DNA of 64,000 bases from an uncultured Hyphomicrobiales bacterium (lineage in GTDB: Bacteria > Pseudomonadota > Alphaproteobacteria > Rhizobiales > Devosiaceae): the NCBI GenBank assembly GCA_903828145.1, contig CAIKKY010000007.1, positions 124,001 to 188,000 on the forward strand. Reading direction: 5' to 3'. Both the position numbers and the translations under genes were made by a program. The notes under the pieces were generated by a model that saw only the letters and a program-made list of their open reading frames with translations, was not told the DNA's origin and searched no databases. Shown piece by piece: positions 24,751-39,745 of this stretch; positions within the stretch are counted from its first letter, which is position 1; each line of letters starts with the position of its first letter.

Positions 24751-25551
24751 TTAGCCCCGCTTCACCCGCTTGATCGCGCCGGCCTGCGGATCGTAGCCGC
24801 GCGCGGCAAGGAGAAACGCAATCAGGGTTGTACCCGCCACCACGCCGAGCGAAACCAGCTCCAGCTGGCCATAGGCGGCAAAGCGCACCAGTTCCACGGC
24901 GTAGGTGAAGGGGTTGGACACAGCCAGCCAGTAGATGATGAACGCCCCGGCCTCGCGCAGCTTCCAAAGCGGGTAAAGCGCGCCCGAGAGGAAGAACATC
25001 GGGAAGACCACGAAATTCATCATGCCTGCGAAGTTCTCGATCTGCCGCGTGTAGACCGAAACAAGAAGGCCGATTGAGCCCAGCATCAGGCCGGTAACGA
25101 CCACCGCCGGCAAAATGTACAGCCAGCCCGTCAGCGGGAAGCCGAAACCCACCAGCCGGGCCACGATCAGGAACAGATAGGTCTGGAGCACCGCCAGCGC
25201 CGTGGCGGCGCAGATCTTGGAAAACAGCAGGAACCAGCGCGGCAGCGGCGTCACCAGCATCACGCGCATCACCCCCGCCTCGCGGTCATAGACCATCGAG
25301 AGGGCCGATTGCATGCACTGGAACAGCACCACAATGCCGATCAGGCCCGGCAGCACATATTCCTGGTAGGGCACATAGGTGACATAGGGCGGGATGATGG
25401 ACACGCCCAACACGTCATGCAGGCCCGCCGCAAACACGATGAGCCAGAGTGCCGGGCGCACCAGCGAAGACAGCATACGCTCGGTCTGGCGCAGGAATTT
25501 GGCGATCTCGCGCCAGGTGATGGCGGAAAAGCCCAGCCAGAAGATACTCAT
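24751..25551 (-). CDS. ABC-2 type permease of a PQQ-dehydrogenase-linked system (PedC/LutF-like)
   Basis: An inner-membrane protein of 266 residues with six hydrophobic segments, of the ABC-2 export-type permease fold (REAGVMRVMLVTPLPRWFLLF, PMFFLSGALYPLWKL). By pattern and neighbours it belongs to the permeases found with PQQ alcohol dehydrogenases. Homologues in Pseudomonas putida (PedC) and Methylorubrum (LutF) are tied to lanthanide transport. It follows the binding-protein gene by 10 bp; its likely ATPase is encoded at 30895-31653. Transport direction is uncertain because the fold resembles exporters. Confidence 0.8.
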   Translation of the reverse strand: MSIFWLGFSAITWREIAKFLRQTERMLSSLVRPALWLIVFAAGLHDVLGVSIIPPYVTYVPYQEYVLPGLIGIVVLFQCMQSALSMVYDREAGVMRVMLVTPLPRWFLLFSKICAATALAVLQTYLFLIVARLVGFGFPLTGWLYILPAVVVTGLMLGSIGLLVSVYTRQIENFAGMMNFVVFPMFFLSGALYPLWKLREAGAFIIYWLAVSNPFTYAVELVRFAAYGQLELVSLGVVAGTTLIAFLLAARGYDPQAGAIKRVKRG

Positions 25552-25561
25552 GTCTCAGCTT

Positions 25562-26734
25562 TCATTGGGGTTGGCACTTGCTTTCTGCCTGGTCGGCCCC
25601 AAGCGTATCAAGCACGTTCACCTGGTGCAGGAATTCCGAGAATGGAGCCGCCTCGATAATGGCGTTACTGGTCGCCAGCACCATGGGCTGGCGCAACTGC
25701 CCGTCCCAGGCACGGAAGCTCATCTTATAGCCCTTGGACCCATCGACGGCAAAGCGCTTGCCGCGCAGATAGGTCGCAACGGCTTCGGGGTCTTCCGAAT
25801 TGGCTTTCACATAGGCGTTGGCAATGGATTTCGCCGCAATCCAGGTGTCGTAATCTTCGGGGCTCATATAGCGCCCGCCCACGGCCTCGCGCTGGAAGCG
25901 CAGAGTGACCTGCGTTGCCCCATCACGATCCCATGACCAGTGCCATTCCGACGCGGTAAGGCCGGTCGACCCGATCACCGGGCGCGGCTGCTGGGTGGCG
26001 TAGTTGAGATAACGCGCATATTCGCCCAGGCTGTCAGCGACATAGACCACATCATAATCAATGCCACCGGTTATCAGCAGCGTGTTGTTATTCTCGCGGT
26101 TCGCCGGGTCCGTGCTCATCGTGAAAACGCGCCGGTCGACGATCTTCACGCCCATGCGCTGCGCCGATTGCTGGAAGCTGTCGGCCATCTCCGTATCGCG
26201 CGGCTGCTGACCGACGAGCATCAGAACGCGGGTCCAGTTCCGGTGCCGGAGGAACTGCGCATAGGTATCGGTGATCATGCGGTCCGAGGCGCCTGAATGG
26301 ATCAGGTTGGGCTGGCACAGATCGCGCAAGCCATTCTGCGGCGCGGTAGCATTGATGAGCGTGACCTTCAGGTCCTTGGTGGCGGCAGCGACCTGCGCAA
26401 CCAGCTCCCCAGGCAGATCAAGAATGACGAAGCGCTCACCGGCTGCGGCCATGGCCTGCACCTTGGCGATAGCGTCATTCGCATCGACGGCCTGGGCCTC
26501 ATCGAGCGCAATGGTCATGCCCACCGCGTCGGTGTTCACCTTCATATCGGAAAGGCCCATGCGCGCGCCTTCGACCGGCACCAGCGCCGGCGCAATCTGA
26601 ATGCGCGTATAGGCCATTTCCGGATGGTAGCGGACATCATCGGTGAGGCCGACAAAGCCGATTTTCACATCGGCCGCCTGGGCGGCTCCAGCGAGGGCGA
26701 GGCCCGCCAGAAGGCAAAGCGCAAGTCTAGTCAT
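25562..26734 (-). CDS. Periplasmic binding protein of the PQQ-linked ABC system (LutA-like)
   Basis: A 390-residue protein starting at the ATG at 26734, giving a good signal peptide (LALCLLAGLALAGAAQA). The mature part has a type I binding-protein fold (VKIGFVGLTDD, a central DTYAQFLRHRNWTRVLMLVG and VIGSTGLTASEW). It is related to the substrate-binding subunits annotated for PQQ-dependent alcohol dehydrogenase systems. Homologues called LutA/PedA-type act in lanthanide acquisition, so a rare-earth complex is the candidate ligand. It overlaps the beta-propeller gene by 8 bp and is followed by the permease. Confidence 0.8.
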   Translation of the reverse strand: MTRLALCLLAGLALAGAAQAADVKIGFVGLTDDVRYHPEMAYTRIQIAPALVPVEGARMGLSDMKVNTDAVGMTIALDEAQAVDANDAIAKVQAMAAAGERFVILDLPGELVAQVAAATKDLKVTLINATAPQNGLRDLCQPNLIHSGASDRMITDTYAQFLRHRNWTRVLMLVGQQPRDTEMADSFQQSAQRMGVKIVDRRVFTMSTDPANRENNNTLLITGGIDYDVVYVADSLGEYARYLNYATQQPRPVIGSTGLTASEWHWSWDRDGATQVTLRFQREAVGGRYMSPEDYDTWIAAKSIANAYVKANSEDPEAVATYLRGKRFAVDGSKGYKMSFRAWDGQLRQPMVLATSNAIIEAAPFSEFLHQVNVLDTLGADQAESKCQPQ

Positions 26735-27716
26735 CGATAAGCACCGTGTGCGGAACACGCCCGACCGGCACGGATTTCACGGCCTCGAGCGTCTCCATAT
26801 TGATGATGGTGATATCGTCGCTGAGCCCATTGGCGGCGATGGCGATTTTTTCATCCGAGCTGAGATCGACCGACCAGACGCGGCTGCCGACCAGCACATA
26901 TTTGATGACCTGATAAGACTTGGTGTCGATCACGGCCACATGGTTGGCACGGCCGAGGCTTGCAAGAATCTTGCTGCCATCCTTGGTGATGGCCATGCCC
27001 ACAGGCGTCACGTCTTCCTCGCGGAAGCCCTGCGGTACGAGGATCAGGCTGTCGACCACGAACTTGTAGGTTTCCGTGTCGATCACGTAGATTTCGCTCG
27101 AAAGCTCGCAACTCACCCACAACTGCTTGCCATCGGGCGTCAGAATGAGGCGGCGCGGCCGCGTGCCCACCACGATATTTTTGACCACGGCCTGCTTTTC
27201 AAGATCGACCACATGCACCATGTCGGCGACCTCAGAGGTCGCATAGACGGTCTTGCCACCGGGCACGACCAGAATGCCCTCAGGCTCAGCGCCGGTCGGG
27301 ATATCCATGGTGGAAATGCGCGACTGCAGGTCGATAGCCTCGATGCGCGAATCCTCCTCGTCGGAGACGAAAACAATGCTCTCGTCTTCGGAGAATTCGA
27401 ACATTTCCGGGCTGGGACCGGTCGGGATCGAGTCGATTACCGTCTGGGTCGCAACATCGATCACATCGATAGCGTCGTCATCGCCGCAGGCCACATAGAG
27501 CAGCGTGCGATCCTTGGTGAAGTGCATGTCGCGCGGGCGGCGCGACGTGGCGATACGGTTGATGACAGTGTAGTCTTTGTCGAGAACAACGACTTCATTG
27601 CCCTTTTCCGTCGAAACGAAAATATTCCCCGTTCCCGTCGCACGGCTGGGCGTAATCCCCAGCATGGCGGTGCCGATCAAAGCCGATCCTGTTGCCAGCA
27701 AATCCCTACGGCGCAT
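26727..27716 (-). CDS. Exported YVTN-type beta-propeller protein of the PQQ-linked system
   Basis: A 329-residue protein. The N-terminus has a twin-Arg motif and hydrophobic helix (RRRDLLATGSALIGTAMLG), so Tat export is plausible. About seven blades follow, each with the pattern of a YVTN/lactonase-like propeller (LLYVACGDDDAIDVIDV, VYATSEVADMVHVVDL, KQLWVSCELSSEIYVIDT, KIAIAANGLSDDITIINM). Such proteins accompany the PQQ-dehydrogenase ABC genes and are part of lanthanide-utilisation clusters. No catalytic motif is evident; a scaffold or metal-complex-binding role is inferred. It overlaps the binding-protein gene. Confidence 0.8.
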   Translation of the reverse strand: MRRRDLLATGSALIGTAMLGITPSRATGTGNIFVSTEKGNEVVVLDKDYTVINRIATSRRPRDMHFTKDRTLLYVACGDDDAIDVIDVATQTVIDSIPTGPSPEMFEFSEDESIVFVSDEEDSRIEAIDLQSRISTMDIPTGAEPEGILVVPGGKTVYATSEVADMVHVVDLEKQAVVKNIVVGTRPRRLILTPDGKQLWVSCELSSEIYVIDTETYKFVVDSLILVPQGFREEDVTPVGMAITKDGSKILASLGRANHVAVIDTKSYQVIKYVLVGSRVWSVDLSSDEKIAIAANGLSDDITIINMETLEAVKSVPVGRVPHTVLIDD

Positions 27717-28389: not shown

Positions 28390-29382
28390 ATGCATAGACG
28401 CGCAGTTCTGGCCGGCATGGCCACGCTTTCGGCCACGCTCTCAGCCCAGGTGGCGTTGGGCTTCACGCCCGAGGGTCACAAACTCATTCTGGGCCTGCAA
28501 TCCACGGGCACCGCCAAGTGGGAACTGGCCGCCATGAGCGCGCTGGGGATCGACAAGAAGCACGGGCTCGAACTCACCGTGAAGGACCTGGCCGACGCCA
28601 AGGCGGGGCAGATTGCGCTCCAGGCCAAGGAAGTCGAAATCATCCTGTCGGATTTCGTCTGGGTGAACCTGCAGCGTCACCAGGGCAACAAGATGATGAT
28701 CGTGCCCCATTCGCTCACCGTGGGCGGGTTGTTGGTCGATCCGGCCGCAGGCATCGCCAGCGTCGCCGACCTCAAGGGCAAGACCCTCGCCGTGTCGGGC
28801 AGCTCGGTGGACAAGAGCTTTGTGATCCTCTCGGCCTATTACGCCAAACAGACCGGCGGGAAGCTGGCCGACGACGCCGACATCAAGTTCGGCGCCCCGC
28901 CGCTGATCAACGAGCTGTTCACCGGCGGCCAGGCGCAGGCCGCGCTCAACCTGTGGAACTGGAACGCCCGCGCCAAGGTGGCCGGCAAGACCGAGCTGAT
29001 CTCGGTCCCGGCCATGCTGGCCGATCTGGGTGTTTCGGCCACCCCGCCGCTCCTCGGCTGGGTGTTCAGCGAAGAGATGGCCACCGAGCGGAAGGCCGAT
29101 TTCAAAGCCTTCCTCGATGCCTCGTTCGAAACCAAAAAGGCCCTGGCGACCGACGACGCAATCTGGACCACGATCCGCGACGCCATGAATGTGGACAGCG
29201 ATGAGCTGTTCATCGCGCTGCGCGATGCCTACCGCGCCGGTATCGTGCTGAAATATTCGTTTGGTGAAATGCAGCCCGCCGCCGAAGCCTTCGCACTCAT
29301 GGCACAGTATGGCGGGGCTGATGTCGTGGGCGAAGCCACAACCCTCGACGAGGGCACCTTCTGGAAAGGTTACCGCAAATAG
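28390..29382 (+). CDS. ABC transporter substrate-binding protein, NitT/TauT type
   Basis: A 330-residue exported protein with a signal peptide (RRAVLAGMATLSATLSAQVALG). The two-lobed fold is of the nitrate/taurine/thiamine-precursor class, with motifs SVADLKGKTLAVSGSSVDKSF and a later PPLINELFTGGQAQAALNLWNW. It is the first gene of a plus-strand unit with its own permease and ATPase. Position between two halves of the PQQ-linked ABC system suggests that its ligand serves the same process (metal chelate, alcohol-related compound or cofactor precursor), but the ligand is not readable from sequence. Confidence 0.85.
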   Translation: MHRRAVLAGMATLSATLSAQVALGFTPEGHKLILGLQSTGTAKWELAAMSALGIDKKHGLELTVKDLADAKAGQIALQAKEVEIILSDFVWVNLQRHQGNKMMIVPHSLTVGGLLVDPAAGIASVADLKGKTLAVSGSSVDKSFVILSAYYAKQTGGKLADDADIKFGAPPLINELFTGGQAQAALNLWNWNARAKVAGKTELISVPAMLADLGVSATPPLLGWVFSEEMATERKADFKAFLDASFETKKALATDDAIWTTIRDAMNVDSDELFIALRDAYRAGIVLKYSFGEMQPAAEAFALMAQYGGADVVGEATTLDEGTFWKGYRK

Positions 29383-29411
29383 CGAGCGGGCCCGTACGGC
29401 AGGTTTCGGCC

Positions 29412-30188
29412 ATGCGGGCCGCTACCCAAGAACGACAGGGCCACGGTATCCGCTGGGAAATCGTGAGCCCTGCCCTTCTGTTGATCGTCTGGCAGGCGCT
29501 GGCCATGCTCTACCCGGGCCGCCTGTTCCCGACCCCTATCGCCGTTGCCCAACAGATGTGGACCTTCTCCGCCTCTGGCCGTTTGCCGCTGGATATGGCC
29601 AAGACCCTCACCCGCGCGGCCATAGCCTTCTTCATTTCCATGGGGATCGGCAGCATCATCGGCGTGGCGATGGGGCGGAACCGCATTTTGGACCGGCTGT
29701 TTTCGGCCTGGGTGATTGTGGGCCTCAACATGCCCGCCATTGTCATCGCCATCGTGCTGTACATCTGGCTCGGGCTCACCGAATTCGCGCTCATCCTGGC
29801 GGTGGTCGTCAATAAGGTCCCGCTCGTCATCACTACCATCCGCGAAGGCGTGCGCAGCTTTTCGGCTGATTACGATGAACTGGGCCGGGCGTTTCGCTTC
29901 CCGCTCCTGCGCCGCCTGCGGCTGATCTTCTGGCCGCAGCTTGTGCCCTATGTGCTGGCCGCGGCCCGCACCGGCCTGTCGCTCGTGTGGAAAATCGTGC
30001 TGGTCTTTGAGGTCCTGGGGTCCGATGGCGGCGTGGGCTTCCGCATCTCCGAACTGTTCCAGTTCTTCGATATCAAGGGCATCCTCGCCTACACGGCTGC
30101 CTTCATCCTCGTCGTGCTCGTCTTCGAATATGGCGTGTTGCGGCCCCTCGAACGCTCGGTGTTGAAATGGCGAATGGACCGCGCGTAA
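29412..30188 (+). CDS. ABC transporter permease, NitT/TauT type
   Basis: An inner-membrane permease of 258 residues with about six hydrophobic segments. The cytoplasmic EAA-type loop is YDELGRAFRFPLLRRLRLIFWPQL, and the VLAAARTGLSLVWKIVLVFE stretch is typical of SsuC/TauC proteins. It begins 29 bp after the binding-protein gene and overlaps the ATPase gene by 22 bp, so the three form one importer operon. Confidence 0.9.
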   Translation: MRAATQERQGHGIRWEIVSPALLLIVWQALAMLYPGRLFPTPIAVAQQMWTFSASGRLPLDMAKTLTRAAIAFFISMGIGSIIGVAMGRNRILDRLFSAWVIVGLNMPAIVIAIVLYIWLGLTEFALILAVVVNKVPLVITTIREGVRSFSADYDELGRAFRFPLLRRLRLIFWPQLVPYVLAAARTGLSLVWKIVLVFEVLGSDGGVGFRISELFQFFDIKGILAYTAAFILVVLVFEYGVLRPLERSVLKWRMDRA

Positions 30189-30898
30189 CACTCGACATTG
30201 CGCTCAAGCGGTTTCCCCGGCTGCCGGTGCCGCTGATCGAGGGTCTGGCGCTCGAGATCGCCCCATCGAGCGTGGTTGCGCTTGTCGGGCCATCCGGCGT
30301 TGGCAAATCGAGCCTGCTGCGCCTCGTGGCGGGGATCGATACCGATTTCACCGGCTCGATTCTGGTCGATGGCCTGCCTGCCGCAACGGCGCCACCGGCG
30401 GGCTTCGTGTTTCAGGATTCGCGCCTTCTCCCCTGGCTCACGGCACGCGACAACATCCGCGCAGTGCGCCCGGCGATCACCGCCGCCGAGGCCACGGCGC
30501 TGCTCAGGCAGGTCGATCTCGAAACCTATGCCGACGCCTTTCCGCGCCAGCTCTCCGGCGGCATGCAGCGGCGGGTGGCGCTGGCCCGCGCACTGGCCGT
30601 AAACCCGGATCTGCTGCTGTTGGACGAACCCTTCGTTTCGCTCGACCGCGCGCTGGTCACCGATCTTCAGCGCGTCTTCCTGAGCCTGTTTGATCGGCAG
30701 CACCCCACGGTGCTCCTCGTCACCCACTGGCCTGAGGATGCCGCGATCCTCGCCGACCGCGCCATACTGCTCGATGGACGGCCGCTGCGGATCGTGGGAG
30801 ATTTCCAGCTCGAGGGCAAACGCGGCGAACGCAGCCGTGCCCACATCGAGCAGATGACCGCACTGATTTCTGAACACAGAACCGAGGCCACCCGATGA
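30167..30898 (+). CDS. ABC transporter ATPase, NitT/TauT type
   Basis: A 243-residue ATPase. Walker A is GPSGVGKSS, the signature LSGGMQRR, Walker B LLLLDEPFVSLD and the switch His in LVTHWPEDA. The Q-loop is in GFVFQDSRLLPW. It overlaps the permease gene at its start and the next ATPase by 4 bp (ATGA), so one message carries both ATPases. It should energise the 28390-30188 importer. Confidence 0.9.
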   Translation: MANGPRVTLDIALKRFPRLPVPLIEGLALEIAPSSVVALVGPSGVGKSSLLRLVAGIDTDFTGSILVDGLPAATAPPAGFVFQDSRLLPWLTARDNIRAVRPAITAAEATALLRQVDLETYADAFPRQLSGGMQRRVALARALAVNPDLLLLDEPFVSLDRALVTDLQRVFLSLFDRQHPTVLLVTHWPEDAAILADRAILLDGRPLRIVGDFQLEGKRGERSRAHIEQMTALISEHRTEATR

Positions 30899-31653
30899 CC
30901 GACATTGAGACAGTGCTCGCGCTAAACACCATCACCAAGACTTACGGCAAGACCACCGCCCTGAAGGACGTGTCGCTGTCGATCAAGAAGGGTGAGATTG
31001 TCGGTCTGCTCGGACCCAACGGGGCGGGCAAATCCACCCTGTTCCAGATCGCCGCCGGGCTTTTCGCGCCCGATGGCGGCAGCGTGAATGTCTTCGGCAT
31101 GACCTACCAGGGCCAGGCCGCGCAGATTCTGACCCGCCTCGGGGTGGTGTTTCAGGCCCGGGCCATTGATCTCGACATGACCGTCATTGCCAATCTGCGC
31201 TTCCATGCCGCCCTGTTCGGGCTGGGCGGAAAGTCCGCTGAGGCCCGGATTGCCGATGTTGCGGCCCTGCTCGAAATCACCGACCTCATCAAGAAGCCGG
31301 TGCGCACCCTGTCGGGCGGCAATCAGCGCCGGGTCGAGGTGGCACGGGCCCTGCTCAATAAGCCGGACCTGCTGCTGATGGACGAGCCGACCGTCGGGCT
31401 CGATCCGGTGTCGCGCCAGCTCGTGGTGCGCCACATCCGCGACGTGCGCGACCGTAACGGCACCACGATCCTCTGGGCCACGCACCTGATTGAGGAACTG
31501 GCTGGCGCCGACCGCATCATCATGCTGCGCACGGGCGAAATCATCCAGGAAGGAACCCCCGCCGAGCTTCTGGCGCGAGCCGGGGCCGCGACCCTTACCG
31601 ATGCCTATATCGCGCTCACCGGCGCGCCGGAGGTTGAGGCGACGCCCGCCTAG
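30895..31653 (+). CDS. ABC transporter ATPase of the PQQ-dehydrogenase-linked system (LutE/PedA-like)
   Basis: A 252-residue ATPase of the ABC-2/CcmA-type class. Walker A is GPNGAGKST, the signature is LSGGNQRR, Walker B LLMDEPTVGLD, and the switch is WATHLIEE. The class matches the ABC-2 permease at 24751-25551 rather than the NitT-type permease next door. ATPases of this kind are annotated for PQQ-dependent alcohol dehydrogenase systems and correspond to LutE in lanthanide clusters. Its start overlaps the preceding ATPase stop (ATGA). Confidence 0.85.
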   Translation: MTDIETVLALNTITKTYGKTTALKDVSLSIKKGEIVGLLGPNGAGKSTLFQIAAGLFAPDGGSVNVFGMTYQGQAAQILTRLGVVFQARAIDLDMTVIANLRFHAALFGLGGKSAEARIADVAALLEITDLIKKPVRTLSGGNQRRVEVARALLNKPDLLLMDEPTVGLDPVSRQLVVRHIRDVRDRNGTTILWATHLIEELAGADRIIMLRTGEIIQEGTPAELLARAGAATLTDAYIALTGAPEVEATPA

Positions 31654-32803: not shown

Positions 32804-33394
32804 CTACTTTGGTTTTTCGGGGGTGACAGGGGCGGCTTCAATGCCAAAGGTCAGCATGCCGGGTTCAAACTGGAACACCCGTTCGCCCACGGTGGATGAT
32901 CCGCCGCGCTTGCCGGTGATCTTGTCGGTCTGAACTTCCTGCGCCAGAGCTTCGGCCGTTTGCTCTTCCAGCTGGTTTTCGGCGTCGATCAGGCCCTGGA
33001 CCTCTTCGCCCTGCTTGATCATACCCATGGCGTCGTTGACCTTGATCTTGAGGTCATCCGAATAGGGAAGCTGATAGGCGCGCGGCTGACCCGTTGGAAA
33101 ATTGTCTTTATCCAGCGTTTGCAGCCACAGGAAGACATGGCCCTTCTCGTTCTGCAGCGGACTGGGCTCGATAATCTGGGCCCAGAGCATGCGGAAATTA
33201 AACGGAATTGGCCCATCCGTCGGCAGGCCACGCAGCTCACCAACACCAAAAAAGGTGAGCGGAATGAGCGCGATGGTCGCGAGGGTGGCCAGCCCTTTGA
33301 ATACCCAGTTCAGCCGCGACATCAGCAGCAGGTAAGCCAGCAGCGCGGCAACCAGCGCATAGGCTGCCGTCAGGGACAGGATCGTGAAGGTCAT
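32804..33394 (-). CDS. Membrane protein of the ExbB-like operon, unknown function
   Basis: A 196-residue protein with two N-terminal hydrophobic helices (ILSLTAAYALVAALLAYLLL and GLATLATIALIPLTFFGVG) and a soluble C-terminal domain of about 130 residues, probably periplasmic. I recognise no family. Its start overlaps the stop of the upstream ExbD-like gene (ATGA). Co-translation with that gene and the ExbB-like channel gene suggests the three products form one membrane complex. It is the last gene of the operon. Confidence 0.75.
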   Translation of the reverse strand: MTFTILSLTAAYALVAALLAYLLLMSRLNWVFKGLATLATIALIPLTFFGVGELRGLPTDGPIPFNFRMLWAQIIEPSPLQNEKGHVFLWLQTLDKDNFPTGQPRAYQLPYSDDLKIKVNDAMGMIKQGEEVQGLIDAENQLEEQTAEALAQEVQTDKITGKRGGSSTVGERVFQFEPGMLTFGIEAAPVTPEKPK

Positions 33395-34071
33395 TGCGGA
33401 ATCACCTGTCCCGTCGCTGCATCAATCGGCCCGGATGGCCCGCCGCCGCCCCCGCCGCCGTCCTTGCCACCCGACGAGCGGGTCAGCTCGACAAGGCTCT
33501 TGGGCGTGCTCGTGACATTGAGCACGTCCTGCCCCTTGAGGGTAAAGCGGACCGCCGTCTCTTCATCACCCGTGCCCTTCATCTGCAGGGTCTGATAGAA
33601 GACGATCTTCACGGTGGGGTTCAGCTTTTCAACCTTTACGGTCACCGGCAGGGGTGCGCTGCTGTTGGCGATATAGTGCACGACATTAACGGTATATTCG
33701 CCGTCTTCGAGGCCGCGGAAGGCCACGATTTCCTGGTTCAGCGGGTTCGAGATTTCCTTCCCATCGAGCAGGATCACGTCCTTGAACATGCCGCGGTCGT
33801 CGCGCTCGAGATGCATCAGTCCCGCCTCTCGCTGGTTGTACCAGACGATATTGCCGGCCGGGTCTTCGACATAGGTGTCCATGTCGTCCGTATTATCATC
33901 TGGCCAGGTGACGGTGATCATCATTTCAGCCTTGGGATCAACCTTGCCCTGATCGGCGGGCTTGTTGATCATGGCGAACGAAATGAAGAACATGAAGGTG
34001 ATGGCCTTCAGTGAATTGAACAGCAGGGCCGAGAAAATCTCGAACTCTGGTTCCTGTTCCTCTTCAAACAT
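33391..34071 (-). CDS. ExbD-position membrane protein with periplasmic beta domain
   Basis: A 226-residue protein with a short acidic cytoplasmic start, one transmembrane helix (ALLFNSLKAITFMFFISFAMI), and a periplasmic region. The domain at about residues 50-130 (MMITVTWPDDNTDDMDTYVEDP, then VVHYIANSSAPLPVTVKV) resembles DUF2135-like beta sandwiches. The end is Gly-rich. Topology and position after an ExbB/MotA-like gene match ExbD/TolR, but the conserved membrane Asp of ExbD is not obvious; Asn and Lys lie in or near the helix instead. It overlaps both neighbours. Confidence 0.72.
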   Translation of the reverse strand: MFEEEQEPEFEIFSALLFNSLKAITFMFFISFAMINKPADQGKVDPKAEMMITVTWPDDNTDDMDTYVEDPAGNIVWYNQREAGLMHLERDDRGMFKDVILLDGKEISNPLNQEIVAFRGLEDGEYTVNVVHYIANSSAPLPVTVKVEKLNPTVKIVFYQTLQMKGTGDEETAVRFTLKGQDVLNVTSTPKSLVELTRSSGGKDGGGGGGGPSGPIDAATGQVIPQ

Positions 34072-34807
34072 CGCGCTCGCCCCGGGCCAGCAGCGGCAGG
34101 AGCGACACTTCCGTGAAGCTGACCGCGGTCTGGCTGATGTCGGTCACCAGCGCATCGGCAATGTTATATTCCAGCCGAAGAAGAATGCCGCCAATGAGGC
34201 CGGCAATCGTGGTCAACAGCGACACAGCCATGCCGGCAATCATGTCCTGCAGGGCGGTGCGCAAGGTATCAACGTCGAAATTCGACAGGTCGCCCATGGA
34301 ATTCAGCATCATGACGAAGCCGACCATCGTGCCAAGCATGCCGAGCTTGTACAGAAGATCGGTGCCATAAACGCCGATCTTGGTGCGGCGGCGGAAGCTG
34401 GCTCCGAGGCTCATCATCAGCAGATGGGCATTGCCCTCCACTTCGGACGGGTGCTCCCGCGAGCGGATCACATCGGCCATGTAGCGGTCGACCAGCCCGT
34501 TGCCGCGCGGCAGGGCGGGCACGCGCGTCGATGTGGCCAGCATGTCCTTGATCTGCAGTGCGCGGCGGTATTCACGCCCCAGTTCCACCAGAATCCAAAG
34601 GCAGTGGGCCGAGAAGCCGACATAGAGCACCGCGATCAGCACGGTGATTTTGGACCGGTCAGAGCCAAACAGATAGTTCAGAAGCCCGTAGTCATAGGAT
34701 ACGACCGCGGCCACCGCGATCAGCGCCATCAACAGCGCCCATTTCAGAACGGCGTCAAAAGCCCCGCTGCGGCCGGGTAACATGATTGCATCGGCAAGTT
34801 GCGTCAT
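34064..34807 (-). CDS. MotA/TolQ/ExbB-family proton-channel protein
   Basis: A 247-residue membrane protein. The start at 34807 lies 9 bp after the upstream stop with AGGACGG before it; an earlier in-frame ATG (34858) is inside the neighbouring gene. Four hydrophobic helices are seen. The last two carry the family signature: LYKLGMLGTMVGFVMML and DMIAGMAVSLLTTIAGLIGGILL, corresponding to the ion-path helices of ExbB and MotA. The partner is the ExbD-position gene that overlaps it by 8 bp. It probably uses proton flow to energise something across the envelope. It is not the standard exbB or tolQ locus. Confidence 0.85.
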   Translation of the reverse strand: MTQLADAIMLPGRSGAFDAVLKWALLMALIAVAAVVSYDYGLLNYLFGSDRSKITVLIAVLYVGFSAHCLWILVELGREYRRALQIKDMLATSTRVPALPRGNGLVDRYMADVIRSREHPSEVEGNAHLLMMSLGASFRRRTKIGVYGTDLLYKLGMLGTMVGFVMMLNSMGDLSNFDVDTLRTALQDMIAGMAVSLLTTIAGLIGGILLRLEYNIADALVTDISQTAVSFTEVSLLPLLARGERDV

Positions 34808-34815
34808 TGTCCGTC

Positions 34816-35379
34816 CTATCTGTATCCGCCCCGCGTTTCGCGGCGACGAAATATCCATGGTTCTTCAAAAACTACGCCCGGCTGCCAGAGCCCCACCCCT
34901 GCGGTAATCGCATCGGCCATTTCGGGATCGTATTCGTCGGATTGTTCGACCAGGACAAGCGCCAGACCGGCCTTCACCATCTCGGCACCGAGATCCTGGC
35001 CGCCGCTCTCGCAAACGCCAAAGCGCCGTCCAAACGGATCAGGCTCGCTCTTGTAGGTGCAGCTCACTTCACCGCGCCCGGCGAGTAGCTGCAGCTTGCG
35101 GAATGCGGCTTCGTAGCAGCCCCACAGCTTGCCATCCAACTGGCAGGTCTGCTTCTTCTCTGGAGCATCGAGGCCCCACAGAATGATGCGCTGCATGCCG
35201 AATTTCAGAACATCCGCGTCGATGGCCTCAGCCATACCACGAATGCCGGTTTCAGTAGCCTGCGCTTGGGCCTGGGCCTGGGCGACGCCGGTCAGGGTGC
35301 TCGTCAGCAGCGCCAGAATTGTAAAGGCCAATGTCCACAATTTGCGAAAGCGGTGGACGACGCCCGTATCAGAAGGCAC
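34816..35379 (-). CDS. Exported thermonuclease-fold protein, probably altered active site
   Basis: A 187-residue SNase-like protein. I chose the GTG at 35379, which follows AAAGGG; the ATG at 35421 would overlap the divergent gene's start. An N-terminal hydrophobic segment (LAFTILALLTSTLTGVAQA) directs export. The core keeps GLDAPE (the catalytic Glu) and DPFGRRFGV (the second Arg), with GAEMVKAGLAL after. The first catalytic Arg, expected five residues before the Asp of DAPE, reads as Ile by eye. Four Cys residues may form disulfides. It is the first gene of the ExbB-like operon. Confidence 0.78.
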   Translation of the reverse strand: MPSDTGVVHRFRKLWTLAFTILALLTSTLTGVAQAQAQAQATETGIRGMAEAIDADVLKFGMQRIILWGLDAPEKKQTCQLDGKLWGCYEAAFRKLQLLAGRGEVSCTYKSEPDPFGRRFGVCESGGQDLGAEMVKAGLALVLVEQSDEYDPEMADAITAGVGLWQPGVVFEEPWIFRRRETRGGYR

Positions 35380-35413
35380 AAGCAAACCCTTTCGAATTAA
35401 GGAGAGACCAAGA

Positions 35414-36184
35414 ATGCGCATTGTGTTGGCGGCGGCTCTGGTCTTGATGGCAACCCCGGTCTTTGCCGATCAGGTTGCCGATCTCATTGCCGGAACGATC
35501 AAGGAATGTCGGGGATGCGACCTGCAGGGGGCCAATTTCAAAAAGGCCGATCTGGCTGGCGTTGATCTGACGGGGGCGAACCTGACGGACGCCACATTCC
35601 ACCGGGCCAACCTGAGCGGCGCGATTCTCGACGGCGTTACCGCCATTGGCACCAATTTCAATCTGGCCGATCTGTCCAAGGCCCATATGGTCAAGGGCGA
35701 TTTCACCCGCTCCATGTTCTTTAACGCGCAGGTCTCGGGCGCCGATCTCTCGGGCGCCAACCTCACCGAGACGCGCATGCAGAAGGTGCGGTTGACCTCC
35801 GCCAAGCTGGTTGGCGCGGTGCTCGATCGGGCTCTGCTGCACGATGGCCTGCTGAACAACTGCGATTTCAGCGGCGCGTCCTTCATCTCGACGAACCTGG
35901 AACGCACGCGGGTAGCCCGCTCCAAATTCAACGGGGCCACGCTGTACAGCGCCAGCTTCGGCAAGGCCGATGCAGCCGGTGCCGACTTTTCGAACACGAC
36001 GATTACCCAGAGCGACTTTTATGGTGTCGATCTGCGCCGGGCGAAATTTGTCGGCGCCACCATTGCGGCCAACCGCTTCTCGCGCGCGGCGACCGACGCG
36101 AACACTTTTACCGGCGCAACCCTGACCAACAACTTCATGCCCGATGGTCGCCTGCATGCTCAGGGTTCCTCAGACAGCGAATAG
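35414..36184 (+). CDS. Exported pentapeptide-repeat protein
   Basis: A 256-residue protein starting at the ATG behind AAGGAGAG. The signal peptide is VLAAALVLMATPVFA. From about residue 35 onward it consists of pentapeptide repeats of the A-(D/N)-L-x-x type (LQGANFKKADLAGVDLTGAN), about 40 units, forming a right-handed quadrilateral beta helix. A C-x-x-C pair (ECRGCDL) precedes the repeats. It starts between divergent promoters with the nuclease-like gene and its end overlaps the convergent gene by 25 bp. Export is unusual for this family; the function is unknown. Confidence 0.85.
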   Translation: MRIVLAAALVLMATPVFADQVADLIAGTIKECRGCDLQGANFKKADLAGVDLTGANLTDATFHRANLSGAILDGVTAIGTNFNLADLSKAHMVKGDFTRSMFFNAQVSGADLSGANLTETRMQKVRLTSAKLVGAVLDRALLHDGLLNNCDFSGASFISTNLERTRVARSKFNGATLYSASFGKADAAGADFSNTTITQSDFYGVDLRRAKFVGATIAANRFSRAATDANTFTGATLTNNFMPDGRLHAQGSSDSE

Positions 36185-36924
36185 GGCGCATTGACGATTT
36201 CCAGCCGGGTCTTGGACTCGTAATAGCCGGTGTTGACCTGCTGGGTCTCGCGGCTCAGCCCTTCCTGACCCTTCTTGCGCAGATAGCTGGCCTCGATCAG
36301 CAGCCGCTGGTTCTTGCCATCCGGATTGGTGCCGGTGCACAGCCGGTGGATGAAGTCGCTGCCGACCTTCTGCTCGCCGTCGCGCATGGGAATATCCTGG
36401 CAGTTCAGGTTCCAGCCCGAGTATCGACCCTCAAAATTCTTGCTCAAGACCACAGCGACCCGCCGGTCGCGGTCGCTGGCGCGATCATCGGTCACGACGC
36501 GGATACCCTGCACCACGCCCTTGTCGTCTACGAGGATCGAGAGGATGACCGGGTGAGCATACACAGAGGTGCCGCTGGAGAGCGCGCGATATTCCAGCTC
36601 CATCGCGCGGGCGATGTAGTCCATTTCGTCGTCGTAAGTGAAGGCCAGCTCGCGGAGGCCCGTCGCCTCGGGCGTGCATTGCGCCCAATCGCGGAAGCTC
36701 TTCAGCTCGATTGAAATCGGGCCACCGTTGGTTCCGCACGCGATAATGGCGGCAACATTATCGGCAATATCGCTTACAGGCTGGCCAATGGGCACATCCC
36801 AAATGGCAAAATCCGGCTCAATGCCCACATCAAGGGCCAACGCTGCGCCGGGCAGGCACCCAAGGCCCGCGACCAGCAGAAGCGCCTGCACCACGCCAAC
36901 CCATCCCGCCCCGCGATGTAGCAT
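36160..36924 (-). CDS. Exported protein of unknown function, downstream of cytochrome c
   Basis: A 254-residue protein with a signal peptide (VVQALLLVAGLGCLPGAALA). I recognise no family. The mature domain contains four Cys residues (IACGTNG, WAQCTPEA, LNCQDIP, RLCTGTN), consistent with disulfides, and mixed alpha/beta composition. Its start overlaps the cytochrome c stop by one base, so both come from one message with the PQQ dehydrogenase. A periplasmic assembly or electron-transfer accessory role is inferred from position. Confidence 0.75.
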   Translation of the reverse strand: MLHRGAGWVGVVQALLLVAGLGCLPGAALALDVGIEPDFAIWDVPIGQPVSDIADNVAAIIACGTNGGPISIELKSFRDWAQCTPEATGLRELAFTYDDEMDYIARAMELEYRALSSGTSVYAHPVILSILVDDKGVVQGIRVVTDDRASDRDRRVAVVLSKNFEGRYSGWNLNCQDIPMRDGEQKVGSDFIHRLCTGTNPDGKNQRLLIEASYLRKKGQEGLSRETQQVNTGYYESKTRLEIVNAPYSLSEEP

Positions 36925-37454
36925 CAGTTACCCTTGAGGTAGGAGCAGGCCCGATCGGCCGAGGATTCGAAATAGAGCGCGCATTCGTCGTACGTCGGCT
37001 TGCCGTGACCGATCATGTATTTTTGCAGGTACGCGATCAGATCAAGCATCTGCTTTTCGCGAAAAGTTTTGCCCATCAGCGGCTTCTGGCCAGGCTGGAA
37101 GTCCGCGAGCTTCATACCGAAGCACCGGTCGTCCTTATAGCTCACCCGATCGTGGTAGGGCATCTGCGTGCCCGGGATACCGCACCGGATGACATCATAA
37201 AGGCCCTGCGCGTCGAGGCTCGACTCCCGCAGATTGGCCGCGGCCGCATGGGACATCGGGTTGCGTCCAGATTCACCGTCGCCGGCCCAGCCATGGCAGT
37301 TCACGCACACGCCAACGCGCTGGTAAATCTGCTTGCCCTTGTCGGCATCGCCCTGGGTGAAGTCTGGTGTCTGGTTGAATTCAGCGACCACGGCAGAGCT
37401 AAGGCACAGCAGAGCCGGGATACTGAAAGCCACAAGTCTCAGGGCTTTAAGCAT
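36924..37454 (-). CDS. Periplasmic c-type cytochrome, probable electron acceptor of the PQQ dehydrogenase
   Basis: A 176-residue protein with a signal peptide (LRLVAFSIPALLCLSSAVVA). One haem site, CVNCHG, lies near residue 50, and a Met for the sixth ligand is probably in GTQMPYHDR. Additional Cys residues (VIRCGIP, DDRCFGM, YDECALYF, RACSYL) resemble the four-Cys cytochromes linked to methanol metabolism. It starts 129 bp after the dehydrogenase gene on the same strand, the position of xoxG-type genes. The ATG chosen follows GAGGAT. Confidence 0.85.
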   Translation of the reverse strand: MLKALRLVAFSIPALLCLSSAVVAEFNQTPDFTQGDADKGKQIYQRVGVCVNCHGWAGDGESGRNPMSHAAAANLRESSLDAQGLYDVIRCGIPGTQMPYHDRVSYKDDRCFGMKLADFQPGQKPLMGKTFREKQMLDLIAYLQKYMIGHGKPTYDECALYFESSADRACSYLKGN

Positions 37455-37583
37455 CAGATCCTCAGTCAAACCATTTCAGGGGTGTCTGTCGGGCCTCAAC
37501 GATGAGGCAGTCCGGGGTCGCACGCGGTGGTTGAAAGATCAAGGGCCAGGCAGGTTTCCCTGCCCGGCCCCCGATCACAAGTG

Positions 37584-39323
37584 TTAGAGGCCGAGGATCC
37601 AGACGATGTTCGCGGCCGGCTTACCCTCAAGCTCCGGGTGACCGAAGGTTGCGAGACCGATACCACCACCGACGATGGCAATGTATTGCTTGCCGCCCGC
37701 GGTGAAGGCAATCGGCGAACTCTGGAACGACGTGCCAAGGTTCATCGACCACTTCACTTCGAGGGTCTTCGCATCGTAGGCCGCGAAGGTCCCGTCAGTC
37801 GAACCGGCCCAGACCAGGTCCGGGGTCGCCATCACACCGCTATACATCGGGAACGGGGTCGGCTGCTGAGCAATCCGCTTGCCAGTCGCCACGTCCACGG
37901 CGCTGACGGTACCCGTCTGCACGCCGCTGTTCGTACCCGAGCCACCGATGAAGATCTGGCCAGGCTTCACGTCAGCCGGAGCCACAGTCTTCACCGAGAG
38001 GTCCGAGCAGCCTTCGATACCAACGGCATAGGCAATGCCCAGCGTCGGGTTGTAGCCAGTCGGGAAGAAGTTCGTGCCGCCCTGGATGTTCGGGCAGGTC
38101 GTTGCCTTAGCCCCGGCGCGGTCGATCTTGCCCATCGCATAAGTCTGAAGCGACTTCGACGGATCATATTCCAGCGGCTTGCCGGTCTTCGGGTCGAGGC
38201 CCTTGGTCCAGGTCAGCTGAGCGACGTACTGGCCGGAATGGATGTACGCGCCATTGGTCCGGTCGAGAGCGTAGAAGATGCCGTTACGGCCAAAGTGAGC
38301 CAGAACCTTGCGATCTTCGCCGTTGACCTTGGTGTTCAGCAGCAGCTGGGGACCGACTTCGTCATAGTCCATATAGTCGCCGGGGGTGTACTGGTAGTAC
38401 CACTTCAGCTTGCCCGAGTCGGCGTCAAGCGCCAGAGTCGAGTTCGTGTAGAGGTTGTCGCCAGGACGATATTCCGGGTCATACATCGGAACCGGGTTAC
38501 CCGTGCCCCAATAGAGCGTGTTGCTTTCCGGGTCGTACGAACCCGAAACCCACATACCGCCGCCGCCGGTCTTCCAGCAATCCGGGTTACCGGCTTCTTC
38601 GCACAGCCAGGTTTCAGAACCCGGCTCGCCCTTGTCCGGCACGGCGTAGAAGCGCCACAGCTCATCACCGTTGTCGGCCTTCAGAGCCGCAACGAAGCCG
38701 CGGGTAGCCCAGTCACCGAGTGACTGGCTGACGAAGATTTTGTCGCCAACAACCAGCGGAGCGCCGGTGAAGCCTTCGCCATCCTTGCCGATCTGCTTTT
38801 CCCAGGCCACGTCACCTGTTTCGCTGTCGCAAGCGACCACGCGGCCGTCGACGAGGTTGGTGATGACGTTATTGCCCGAAAGCGCCAGACCGCGATTGGC
38901 GAGGAGAACACCACGCGTCGGGTCCTTGTCGATGCCGGTGTCGCACACCCACACCATCTTGGCAGACTTGCCGTCCGACACGTCGAACTTGTAGGGCGTG
39001 CCCCACGGATCCGACACGTACAGGAAGCCATTATCGGCCAGCGGAGTCGTTTCCACCGAGCCCACGCCAAAGCCCGCCGGTTCCGTACCGCCGATAGGCG
39101 CTGCCGTGATGACGTGCAGCCCGGCGACGTTGCCCGCGTTGATTTCGTTGAGCGTCGAGAACCGGTTTGAATCAAAGTTCTTGGCGACCATAAGCCAGTT
39201 GCCGGCTTCGGCTTCTGCCGCTGCGTTGGCCAGCCGGTCGGCAGTAACTTCCGCCCAGGCTGATGTTGCGGTAACGGCCAGAACTGCTGCGCAGGTCCCG
39301 GCCAGGAATTTCGACATCCTCAT
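37584..39323 (-). CDS. PQQ-dependent alcohol dehydrogenase, lanthanide-type (XoxF/ExaA-like)
   Basis: A 579-residue periplasmic quinoprotein starting behind GGGAGGG, with a signal peptide (FLAGTCAAVLAVTATSAWA). It is an eight-blade propeller with W-docking motifs. Relative to methanol dehydrogenases, the catalytic Asp is D319 in MDYDEVG. D321, two residues on, is the extra Asp that marks lanthanide-using enzymes. N276 (WGTGNPVP) and the PQQ-stacking W258 are present. By eye the metal-ligand Glu is Asp (D204, SLGDWATRG), and the vicinal Cys pair is missing; single Cys occur at 127, 165, 241 and 249. The substrate is an alcohol, not further specified. Confidence 0.9.
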   Translation of the reverse strand: MRMSKFLAGTCAAVLAVTATSAWAEVTADRLANAAAEAEAGNWLMVAKNFDSNRFSTLNEINAGNVAGLHVITAAPIGGTEPAGFGVGSVETTPLADNGFLYVSDPWGTPYKFDVSDGKSAKMVWVCDTGIDKDPTRGVLLANRGLALSGNNVITNLVDGRVVACDSETGDVAWEKQIGKDGEGFTGAPLVVGDKIFVSQSLGDWATRGFVAALKADNGDELWRFYAVPDKGEPGSETWLCEEAGNPDCWKTGGGGMWVSGSYDPESNTLYWGTGNPVPMYDPEYRPGDNLYTNSTLALDADSGKLKWYYQYTPGDYMDYDEVGPQLLLNTKVNGEDRKVLAHFGRNGIFYALDRTNGAYIHSGQYVAQLTWTKGLDPKTGKPLEYDPSKSLQTYAMGKIDRAGAKATTCPNIQGGTNFFPTGYNPTLGIAYAVGIEGCSDLSVKTVAPADVKPGQIFIGGSGTNSGVQTGTVSAVDVATGKRIAQQPTPFPMYSGVMATPDLVWAGSTDGTFAAYDAKTLEVKWSMNLGTSFQSSPIAFTAGGKQYIAIVGGGIGLATFGHPELEGKPAANIVWILGL

Positions 39324-39745
39324 TGATTTCCCTCCCTGAGAAAACAGATGACGCACATCCGTTGTCGGAAATGTTCGCACCAACCAAGTTTGGATGTTCT
39401 TATATTGAGGATAGGCCCCTTTAGGCCAAACGCAGTTTTGGCACCGGTGCGGGGGCGCTCAGACCCAGGCGCAATAGGGTTCACAGCAGGGGAGGCGGGC
39501 CGAACTGCGTGCGACCACCCAGGAACAAGTGTCTATTTATGGAGAGTGCTCCGCGAAAACCCGCGCGCGACCGTATTGGTAAAATATAACGGCCAAGAGG
39601 TCAGGCCCCGGATCAGCCCATCCCTGTCGGAGACTGGGGAAATCTTGCCAGCATGGGGGCGGGGAGCCGCAACAGGCGGCCGACGCGCCCCCGCCAGAGT
39701 GCACGGCTCCCTGCGGCCGTGATCGATGCCGGATGTTGCCCCATA
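39324..39745. other. Upstream region of the PQQ dehydrogenase
   Basis: No supported gene lies in these 422 bp; a small plus-strand reading frame lacks a ribosome-binding site. The dehydrogenase promoter should lie here. On the minus strand the segment around 39395-39412 reads GCCTATCCTCAATATAAG, and its AT-rich part could be a -10 region. Confidence 0.35.

What the first reader, a model, noticed from the sequence alone, without database searches (positions are those of the whole stretch)
32804..34807. ExbB/MotA-like channel operon of unknown purpose in the alcohol-oxidation island
Three overlapping genes encode a channel protein with the ExbB signature, a single-helix partner in the ExbD position but with a DUF2135-like periplasmic domain and no obvious membrane Asp, and a two-helix protein with a soluble domain. 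Standard ExbB-ExbD-TonB and TolQ-TolR neighbours are absent. It could power import through an outer-membrane metallophore receptor or move a periplasmic polymer. This is my best candidate for an undescribed system.
Basis: partly seen in the sequence, partly recalled or inferred. Interest (0 to 1): 0.72.

Follow-up and report, generated by a model that had tools for sequence, protein, structure and literature searches.

The report
Motor-like membrane operon of quinoprotein bacteria
Three overlapping genes beside an alcohol-oxidising enzyme encode an undescribed relative of the ion-driven machines that turn flagella and power outer-membrane work; close relatives of the operon occur mainly in bacteria that carry such PQQ enzymes, and in this branch the acid that normally carries the ion is gone and a lysine has appeared in the same helix.

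Summary
Three overlapping minus-strand genes encode a MotA/ExbB-superfamily channel (A, 34807-34064), a one-helix partner (B, 34071-33391) and a two-helix partner (C, 33394-32804), near a PQQ dehydrogenase in a Devosia-like genome; TolQR and MotAB lie elsewhere in it. The trio is real: ABC adjacent in 69 of 80 named loci, dN/dS 0.10-0.17. It tracks PQQ alcohol dehydrogenases: 22 of 22 trio genomes against 18 of 79 others among relatives; close-B genomes 18 of 21 against 53 of 268 (class) and 11 of 11 against 56 of 288 (phylum); 56 of 80 named loci have one within 5 kb. B's predicted periplasmic domain resembles TerD, a calcium-binding fold, by structure only (VIA Z 11.8); profile tests did not confirm homology. 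Of 98 B proteins, 76 have the MotB/ExbD-type membrane Asp; the 22 without it, this one included, all have a Lys in that helix, which none of the 76 has, in at least two lineages. Channel threonines are invariant (93 of 93). Most likely it is an ion-driven accessory of periplasmic quinoproteins; metal or PQQ loading is my favoured, unproven role, and import through an outer-membrane receptor stays open. New variant of a known kind.

The parts
34064..34807 (-). A: MotA/ExbB-superfamily channel subunit, 247 aa; Pfam-matched stretch is residues 155-226
   Evidence: Pfam MotA_ExbB 28.3 bits; profile match to own MotA E 1.9e-6; T160 and T200 invariant in 93 of 93 homologues. Four hydrophobic helices read by eye from the sequence (MotA-like; ExbB/TolQ have three, recalled).
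33391..34071 (-). B: single transmembrane helix (residues 11-35) plus periplasmic beta-sandwich (50-187), in the ExbD/MotB position
   Evidence: AlphaFold2 pLDDT 82.6; VIA-align to three entries titled TerD, Z 11.8, 10.1, 9.5
34027..34029 (-). B codon 15: Ala where 76 of 98 B proteins have the MotB/ExbD-type Asp
34006..34008 (-). B codon 22: Lys in the helix; all 22 Asp-less members have a Lys (at 22 or 19), none of the 76 Asp-bearing ones has Lys or Arg there
33778..33906 (-). B residues 56-98: acidic motif W56...D63-x-D65...R90-D91-D92-R93-G94...D98, candidate calcium/lanthanide site
   Evidence: invariant in 57 sequences, D98 at least 90%; order matches TerD W29, D40-L-D42, D78-N79-R80-T-G82, E89; profile statistics not significant
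32804..33394 (-). C: two-helix membrane protein with a small soluble domain (60-191), no known family
   Evidence: AlphaFold2 pLDDT 82.7; no Foldseek match at E 0.001; best VIA Z 6.3, uninformative
34816..35421 (-). Staphylococcal-nuclease-fold protein just upstream of A, same strand (conserved neighbour in alphaproteobacteria)
   Evidence: Pfam SNase 28.1 bits; cluster 5 in 35 of 105 loci called, duplicates included
35303..36184 (+). Pentapeptide-repeat protein (PedD-like neighbour)
   Evidence: Pfam; pedD is a pentapeptide protein of the Pseudomonas ped cluster (PMC12997753, passages)
36160..36924 (-). 254-aa protein of unknown family, conserved island member
   Evidence: no Pfam match; cluster 8 in 31 of 105 loci
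36924..37469 (-). Cytochrome c
   Evidence: Pfam
37584..39383 (-). PQQ-dependent alcohol dehydrogenase, methanol/ethanol type, with the D-Y-D (lanthanide-type) motif
   Evidence: TIGR03075 399.5 bits, below its 480 cut-off; closest solved: quinoprotein ethanol dehydrogenases 6zcv/6zcw; motif
24751..27716 (-). PQQ-ADH-associated ABC permease, binding protein and beta-propeller
   Evidence: TIGR03861 335.9 bits and TIGR03866 298.6 over cut-off, TIGR03863 373.3 below its 413.6
28390..31653 (+). NMT1/SsuA-like ABC importer (binding protein, permease, ATPase) and PQQ_ABC_ATP-like ATPase (283.5 bits, cut-off 302)
   Evidence: Pfam and NCBIfam

Best explanation
A, B and C form an inner-membrane complex of the MotA/ExbB superfamily, by analogy a pentameric channel (A) around a pair of B helices, with C as a membrane partner. 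B's soluble domain lies in the periplasm and C's probably too (positive loop between its helices; inference). Ion movement through A, or in this branch a Lys-based or gated conformational cycle, moves B's acidic, TerD-like domain. It acts on periplasmic quinoprotein alcohol dehydrogenases, most plausibly helping to load or keep their Ca2+/Ln3+ or PQQ. SHOWN: conserved operon, superfamily membership of A, linkage to PQQ dehydrogenases, fold similarity of the predicted B, the Asp/Lys switch, purifying selection. INFERRED: 5:2 assembly, ion flow, metal binding, the dehydrogenase as target. Confidence: about 0.8 for 'superfamily channel complex that is an accessory of quinoprotein alcohol oxidation', about 0.3 for metal/PQQ loading as its job; the figure below is for the whole chain (lowered from 0.40 after receptor genes turned up near some trios).
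For: Linkage: among relatives 22 of 22 trio genomes have a TIGR03075 match of at least 300 bits against 18 of 79 others; within the window's genus 14 of 14 against 0 of 5, one of the five having a 205-bit partial match. Close-B genomes in the class 18 of 21 against 53 of 268, in the phylum sample 11 of 11 against 56 of 288. Neighbourhood: 59 of 80 named loci hold a PQQ dehydrogenase in the fetched stretch, 56 within 5 kb of B; 12 of the other 21 hold other island genes. Two different enzymes are involved: a stand-alone dehydrogenase in alphaproteobacteria and a fused quinohemoprotein in gammaproteobacteria and Myxococcota. Machine: A matches MotA_ExbB and own MotA; Thr160 and Thr200, which align to ExbB threonines, are invariant in 93 of 93; B relatives carry '(P/A)FTD(L/I)LFN' like own TolR 'PMVDVML' and MotB 'SFADLMS'. 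B domain: three entries titled TerD at Z 11.8, 10.1 and 9.5 and two others at 10.1 and 9.5 stand above the next row, 6.3, with TerD's ligand order kept.
Against: Trio and enzyme are not co-transcribed in gammaproteobacteria (tail to tail). Bradyrhizobium trios and L038/L039 have no PQQ gene nearby. Three of 21 close-B genomes in the class sample lack a full methanol/ethanol-type PQQ dehydrogenase, two of them under 90% complete, and a basal branch sits partly among housekeeping genes with an added lipoprotein-like gene. Homology of B to TerD is not supported by sequence: hhalign score 21.1 beats 248 of 250 column shuffles, but the reversed profile scores 23.7, and TerD is not among the 25 of 31 Pfam families shown for 57 members. 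The trio sits beside both Ln-type and Ca-type dehydrogenases, so one metal cannot be its cargo. Receptor genes lie near some trios. 18 of 40 PQQ-ADH genomes among relatives have no B match.
Confidence: 0.38

Rival explanations
1. A general envelope motor (Tol-like or cell-wall-linked, ending at a lipoprotein) whose genes were recruited into quinoprotein islands; its job is not specific to PQQ enzymes.
For: Basal trios carry a fourth gene downstream of C for a lipoprotein-like product, weakly DUF3108-like (L111, L114, L172, L174, L176-L181), some of them among housekeeping genes; G230, G255 and G281 have a close B without a full PQQ-ADH.
Against: Strong co-occurrence with PQQ-ADH in three samples and adjacency to two different PQQ enzymes.
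Confidence: 0.23
2. An energiser for import of PQQ or a metal carrier through an outer-membrane receptor, TonB-like.
For: PQQ import by the TonB-dependent PqqU is widespread (PMC12124388, title and abstract start). In L172 a PqqU-like receptor (486.7 bits over nearly the whole model, cut-off 1200) lies about 5 kb before A and a second receptor right behind the fourth gene. Eight of 80 named loci have a receptor within seven genes. The window's genome has one receptor (contig 14) and no ExbB found beyond TolQ, MotA and A. Eight of 22 trio genomes lack a pqqE over cut-off and may need outside PQQ.
Against: No receptor-like protein in the window or in any alphaproteobacterial locus called, only in gammaproteobacterial ones (no TonB search was made); 14 of 22 trio genomes have pqqE; B resembles TerD in fold, though the absence of ExbD from that list excludes nothing.
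Confidence: 0.17
3. A regulated proton return path or pressure valve that balances protons released in the periplasm by alcohol oxidation.
For: Channel superfamily with invariant threonines; location beside periplasmic dehydrogenases.
Against: Does not explain B's conserved acidic domain or C; Asp missing in 22 of 98.
Confidence: 0.08
4. In the window's branch the complex no longer conducts and is a passive scaffold; the Lys only plugs or staples the helix (an alternative for the switch, compatible with several of the roles above).
For: The ion-carrying Asp, conserved in MotB, TolR and AglQ/S (PMC9389320, passages), is gone.
Against: Pore threonines kept in 21 of 21 Lys-type A proteins; dN/dS about 0.1; a Lys in every Asp-less helix, in more than one branch.
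Confidence: 0.2
5. A Zorya-like anti-phage system.
For: Weak ZorA matches of A (best NCBIfam 27.4 bits against a cut-off of 100).
Against: B and C match no defence family; A has no and B two weak plasmid matches, B none in the viral scan; stable metabolic island.
Confidence: 0.02

Closest known systems
MotAB / ExbBD / TolQR 5:2 ion-driven motors (PMC9389320, passages)
   Same: A has the superfamily's domain and two conserved threonines; most B relatives have the membrane Asp at the same kind of motif.
   Different: B's domain was matched to TerD and not seen to match ExbD/TolR or OmpA-like folds; Asp replaced and Lys gained in this branch; extra two-helix protein C.
TPH-vWA proteins that pair with TolQ-like pentamers without ExbD (PMC12204202, passages)
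   Same: A motor subunit with a one-helix partner carrying an unusual periplasmic domain; that paper says PMF-driven 5:2 motors remain to be discovered.
   Different: vWA domain there, TerD-like sandwich here; no quinoprotein link is told in the passages read.
TerD family, calcium-binding stress proteins
   Same: Fold similarity over 135-142 residues, Z 9.5-11.8 for three TerD-titled entries; order of the Ca1 ligands kept.
   Different: No Pfam hit seen and no significant profile match; here the domain is membrane-anchored and periplasmic.
ped/exa quinoprotein clusters of Pseudomonas (PMC12997753, passages)
   Same: PQQ dehydrogenase, pentapeptide PedD, cytochrome c.
   Different: The words ExbB, TolQ and MotA do not occur in that review's main text.
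mxaACKL maturation genes of methanol dehydrogenase (recalled)
   Same: Membrane-bound accessories of a quinoprotein, thought to place its calcium.
   Different: Those use vWA and MoxR-type proteins (recalled); not compared here.

Membership tests
MotA/TolQ/ExbB superfamily | A passes the Pfam MotA_ExbB gathering score | tested here: met
   28.3 bits against 22.9
MotA/TolQ/ExbB superfamily | Conserved pore threonines (ExbB T148/T181 equivalents; numbers recalled) | tested here: met
   T160 and T200 in 93 of 93; aligned to ExbB
MotA/TolQ/ExbB superfamily | Mid-membrane Asp in the B subunit | tested here: not met
   Ala in the window; Asp in 76 of 98 B proteins. The family of B proteins has it, this member does not.
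MotA/TolQ/ExbB superfamily | 5:2 stoichiometry, ion-driven rotation | not testable with these tools
   no complex prediction or experiment available
ExbB / TolQ / PomA equivalogs | NCBIfam equivalog cut-off | tested here: not met
   TolQ 15.6 of 403 and 12.1 of 221, ExbB2 11.8 of 135, PomA 14.1 of 341 bits
ExbD/TolR or MotB | Fold of the B soluble domain | tested here: inconclusive
   not listed among VIA matches, which excludes nothing
Zorya ZorA | NCBIfam ZorA cut-offs | tested here: not met
   27.4 of 100, 20.6 of 700 bits
TerD | Fold | tested here: met
   predicted model against solved TerD 3ibz, Z 11.8, rmsd 3.5, 139 aligned; Foldseek alone had nothing at E 0.001
TerD | Significant sequence profile match | tested here: not met
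   hhalign prob 0.8% and 3.2%; reversed control scores higher
TerD | Calcium binding | not testable with these tools
   ligand order kept by eye and in the hhalign path
DUF2135 | Pfam PF09906 match | tested here: inconclusive
   window B none; 2 of 57 members, best E 9e-5

The most novel reading that the evidence does not exclude
A charge-inverted molecular motor: in at least two lineages of a 5:2-type ion-driven complex the Asp that carries the ion has been replaced, and a Lys one or two helical turns on (i+4 or i+7) has taken over while the pore threonines stayed, so the machine works by another ion-coupling scheme, and its TerD-like calcium/lanthanide-binding head services periplasmic quinoprotein alcohol dehydrogenases.
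Probability: 0.2. Interest if true: 0.88.

Novelty: new variant of a known kind. Interest (0 to 1): 0.66.

Why it matters
How quinoprotein dehydrogenases receive their metal and PQQ in the periplasm is, to my knowledge, poorly known; a conserved, energisable membrane complex tied to them would give a genetic handle. The trio also adds a motor type with an unusual head to a family known mostly from MotAB, ExbBD and TolQR. And the swap of Asp for a nearby Lys, made more than once by nature, is a ready test of what the membrane carboxylate in these motors is for.

Tried and rejected
Viral contigs: no relative of B. Plasmids: none for A, two weak Azospirillum hits for B, 29% identity over 60%. Defence: padloc gave only weak ZorA hits for A. 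TerD by sequence: negative after controls; a PDB profile search with B gave one chance-level hit. No TerD match in 61 relatives, so B is not a duplicate of a local TerD. C: no Foldseek match at E 0.001, best VIA Z 6.3 to eIF5A, uninformative. Metal type: Lys-type B goes with D-x-D dehydrogenases in 13 of 13 readable cases, but Asp-type goes with D-x-D in 13 and with D-x-T in 37, so the swap does not track metal (64 loci with a readable motif, one without a B label). PQQ supply: pqqE does not track the trio (14 of 22; an early notebook entry says 13, a miscount). A-subunit changes that might compensate the swap: no acid new to most Lys-type members in TM1, TM3 or TM4; Glu75 near the end of TM2 is in 14 of 21 Lys-type and under a fifth of Asp-type ones, not followed up. 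At B position 11 an acid is present in 21 of 22 Lys-type but also in 54 of 76 Asp-type. Methylomicrobium alcaliphilum MEALZ_3990/3991, 'MotA/TolQ/ExbB' genes lower with La than Ca together with mxa genes (PMC6277846, one passage), may be the same trio; I could not check. No structure of A or of the complex was made (two folding jobs only, spent on B and C).

A look at the long neighbours showed receptors in L080, L083, L090, L093, L103, L108, L109, L116 and two in L172 (L080 by NCBIfam, the others by Pfam), a weak hit in L118, none in the window. This raised the import rival from 0.12 to 0.17.

Limits of the counts: the genome tables were tallied by hand with a 300-bit limit for TIGR03075 and a 200-bit limit for close B, where A and C were not searched. 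In some searches the listed genomes had at most four candidates scored. Weaker B matches (16 class genomes, 5 of them with PQQ-ADH; 2 phylum genomes, none with it; 1 relative) were counted with the 'others'. Of the 22 trio genomes A was called in 20 and found by tblastn in the other two; in G025 a contig end separates B from C. Fisher values (1e-11, 1e-9, 4e-8) ignore kinship; 7 of the 11 phylum hits are one family. The three samples overlap (G000 in all, G094 in two). The 80 named loci are the best of at least 503 and so biased towards the query; three of them are genomes also in the relatives set. Gene calls are from my own scripts, which missed some genes; L034, L035 and L053 were dropped as duplicates, L054-L056 also from the tree, and two loci without the helix from the Asp/Lys count.
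Full report
WHAT IS THERE. The three genes lie on the minus strand at the stated place: A 34807-34064, B 34071-33391, C 33394-32804, with starts overlapping the preceding gene by 8 and 4 bases. Upstream on the same strand are an SNase-fold protein, then (past a pentapeptide gene on the other strand) a 254-aa protein, a cytochrome c and a PQQ dehydrogenase; on the far side are PQQ-alcohol-associated ABC genes (TIGR03861, 03863, 03864, 03866 matches, two of the four over cut-off) and an NMT1-type importer. The closest named genomes are Devosia. The genome has two other MotA_ExbB genes: a TolQ followed by TolR, and a MotA followed by MotB, so the trio is a third system of this kind.

IS IT REAL. 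B and C are found in the same 22 of 101 relatives (one further genome has a distant B only); A is in all 22, two of them by tblastn only. In 80 named loci from a scan that stopped at 503 relatives, A-B-C are adjacent in 69; the other 11 are cut contigs or have a gene not called or not clustered, and were not followed up. Overlap or a gap of at most 20 bases between A/B and B/C is kept in 67 and 65 of those 69. dN/dS against close relatives is 0.11-0.12 for A, 0.10-0.16 for B and 0.17 for C. The trio is under purifying selection.

WHAT A IS. A passes Pfam MotA_ExbB but misses the ExbB, TolQ, PomA and ZorA cut-offs by a wide margin. Its profile matches the genome's own MotA best (E 1.9e-6), then E. 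coli ExbB (2.6e-4) and own TolQ (1e-3); E. coli MotA gave nothing. By eye it has four hydrophobic helices. Thr160 and Thr200, which align to ExbB threonines, are invariant in 93 of 93 homologues.

WHAT B IS. The model (pLDDT 82.6) has one helix and a sandwich of some 12 strands. Foldseek alone gave nothing at E 0.001. VIA-align puts first three entries titled TerD (3ibz Z 11.8, 2qz7 10.1, 2kxt 9.5), an entry of unknown function (2qng, 10.1) and a cross-linking model (9a6r, 9.5); the next rows are two DUF4425 entries (6.3, 6.2) and one titled calcium-bound (2lge, 6.2). A paper gives TerD's Ca1 ligands as residues 40, 41, 42, 78, 79, 89 and Ca2 as 29, 82, 84, 88 (PMC8779313, passages). R478 TerD has W29, D40-L41-D42, D78-N79-R80-T81-G82, D88-E89; B has, in the same order, W56, D63-x-D65, D91-D92-R93-G94, D98, invariant in 57 sequences but for D98. 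An hhalign path drew much the same pairing, but its score was not significant: it beats 248 of 250 column shuffles, and the reversed profile scores higher. So: fold similarity and a plausible metal site; homology to TerD not shown. DUF2135 is matched by 2 of 57 members only.

THE ASP-LYS SWITCH. Of 98 B proteins with the helix, window included, 76 have Asp at the MotB/ExbD place ('FTDLLFN'), and none of these has a Lys or Arg in the helix columns; 22 have Ala, Val or Ser there, and all 22 have one Lys, at i+7 (16) or i+4 (6). In a tree made without the helix columns the well-supported branches still force three changes between the types (with the helix); the tool warns that three changes may be one gain and two losses. 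One of the three rests on L130 alone, a long branch, so I call two events firm and a third likely. The nearest outside rows of the window's clade, L073 and L036, keep Asp, so here the Asp was most simply lost. Asp binds the proton in known motors (PMC9389320, passages). The threonines stay in all 21 Lys-type A proteins.

LINK TO QUINOPROTEINS. Among relatives 22 of 22 trio genomes have a full-length PQQ alcohol dehydrogenase, against 18 of 79 others; in the window's genus 14 of 14 against 0 of 5 (one of the five has a 205-bit partial match). Close-B genomes: class sample 18 of 21 against 53 of 268, phylum sample 11 of 11 against 56 of 288. Of 80 named loci 59 have a PQQ dehydrogenase in the stretch and 56 within 5 kb; 12 more have other island genes; 9 have neither, several on short contigs. 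In alphaproteobacteria the enzyme is stand-alone with the D-x-D motif, held to mark lanthanide use (PMC11996626, passages); in gammaproteobacteria and Myxococcota it is mostly a fused quinohemoprotein with D-x-T, mostly under 1 kb away and tail to tail. The trio follows the enzyme rather than PQQ synthesis: 14 of 22 trio genomes have pqqE over cut-off.

WHERE THE LINK FAILS OR POINTS ELSEWHERE. Bradyrhizobium trios (Lys-type) sit beside a two-component system and a phosphoesterase (L112), in G094 some 470 kb from the nearest listed PQQ-ADH. L038 (and by gene cluster L039) lies beside ribosomal protein S2. A basal branch has a fourth gene for a lipoprotein-like product (a sub-cut-off DUF3108-like match in one of two scanned) and, in part, housekeeping neighbours. 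G230, G255 and G281 have a close B without a full PQQ-ADH, two of them incomplete genomes. TonB-dependent receptors lie within seven genes of B in 8 of 80 named loci and two lie near the trio in L172, one PqqU-like; the window has none, and its genome's single receptor is on another contig, with no ExbB found beside TolQ, MotA and A. So the machine may be older than its quinoprotein role, and import is not excluded.

HOW IT MOST LIKELY WORKS. I take it as an ion-driven complex whose periplasmic head serves the dehydrogenases. Loading of Ca2+/Ln3+ or PQQ fits the acidic head, the periplasmic site and the presence beside both Ca- and Ln-type enzymes, but nothing here shows binding, ion flow or the target. 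Membership of the superfamily is met for A; the Asp feature is not met in this member though met in most relatives.

NOVELTY. I found no paper on this trio in searches of an open-access library; two recent surveys of such motors (PMC12505986, PMC12204202, passages) leave room for new members. Verdict: new variant of a known kind, with an unusual head and a repeated charge swap.

Noticed in passing
L111:11219-11821, L114:11114-11821, L172, L174, L176-L181: Basal trios carry a fourth gene directly downstream of C for a lipoprotein-like product, perhaps an ancestral outer component.
   Followed up: partly
   Followed up: partly
L048, L051, L052 just before A: A Sel1-repeat protein gene precedes A in three loci.
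   Followed up: no
G003, G004, G005, G006, G013, G016, G017, G019: Eight trio and PQQ-ADH genomes lack a pqqE over cut-off: possibly PQQ auxotrophs.
   Followed up: partly
window 28390-30898: NMT1/SsuA-type ABC importer conserved beside the island; its substrate is unknown and might be something the PQQ enzyme needs.
   Followed up: no
window 36160-36924: 254-aa protein without any family, conserved in 31 of 105 loci called.
   Followed up: no
PMC6277846: MEALZ_3990/3991 'MotA/TolQ/ExbB' genes of Methylomicrobium alcaliphilum are lower with La than Ca, together with mxa genes; possible relatives of this trio.
   Followed up: no
L055 (G024): A second, distant A-B pair lies beside another PQQ dehydrogenase and ped-type ABC genes in a genome that has a close trio elsewhere.
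   Followed up: partly
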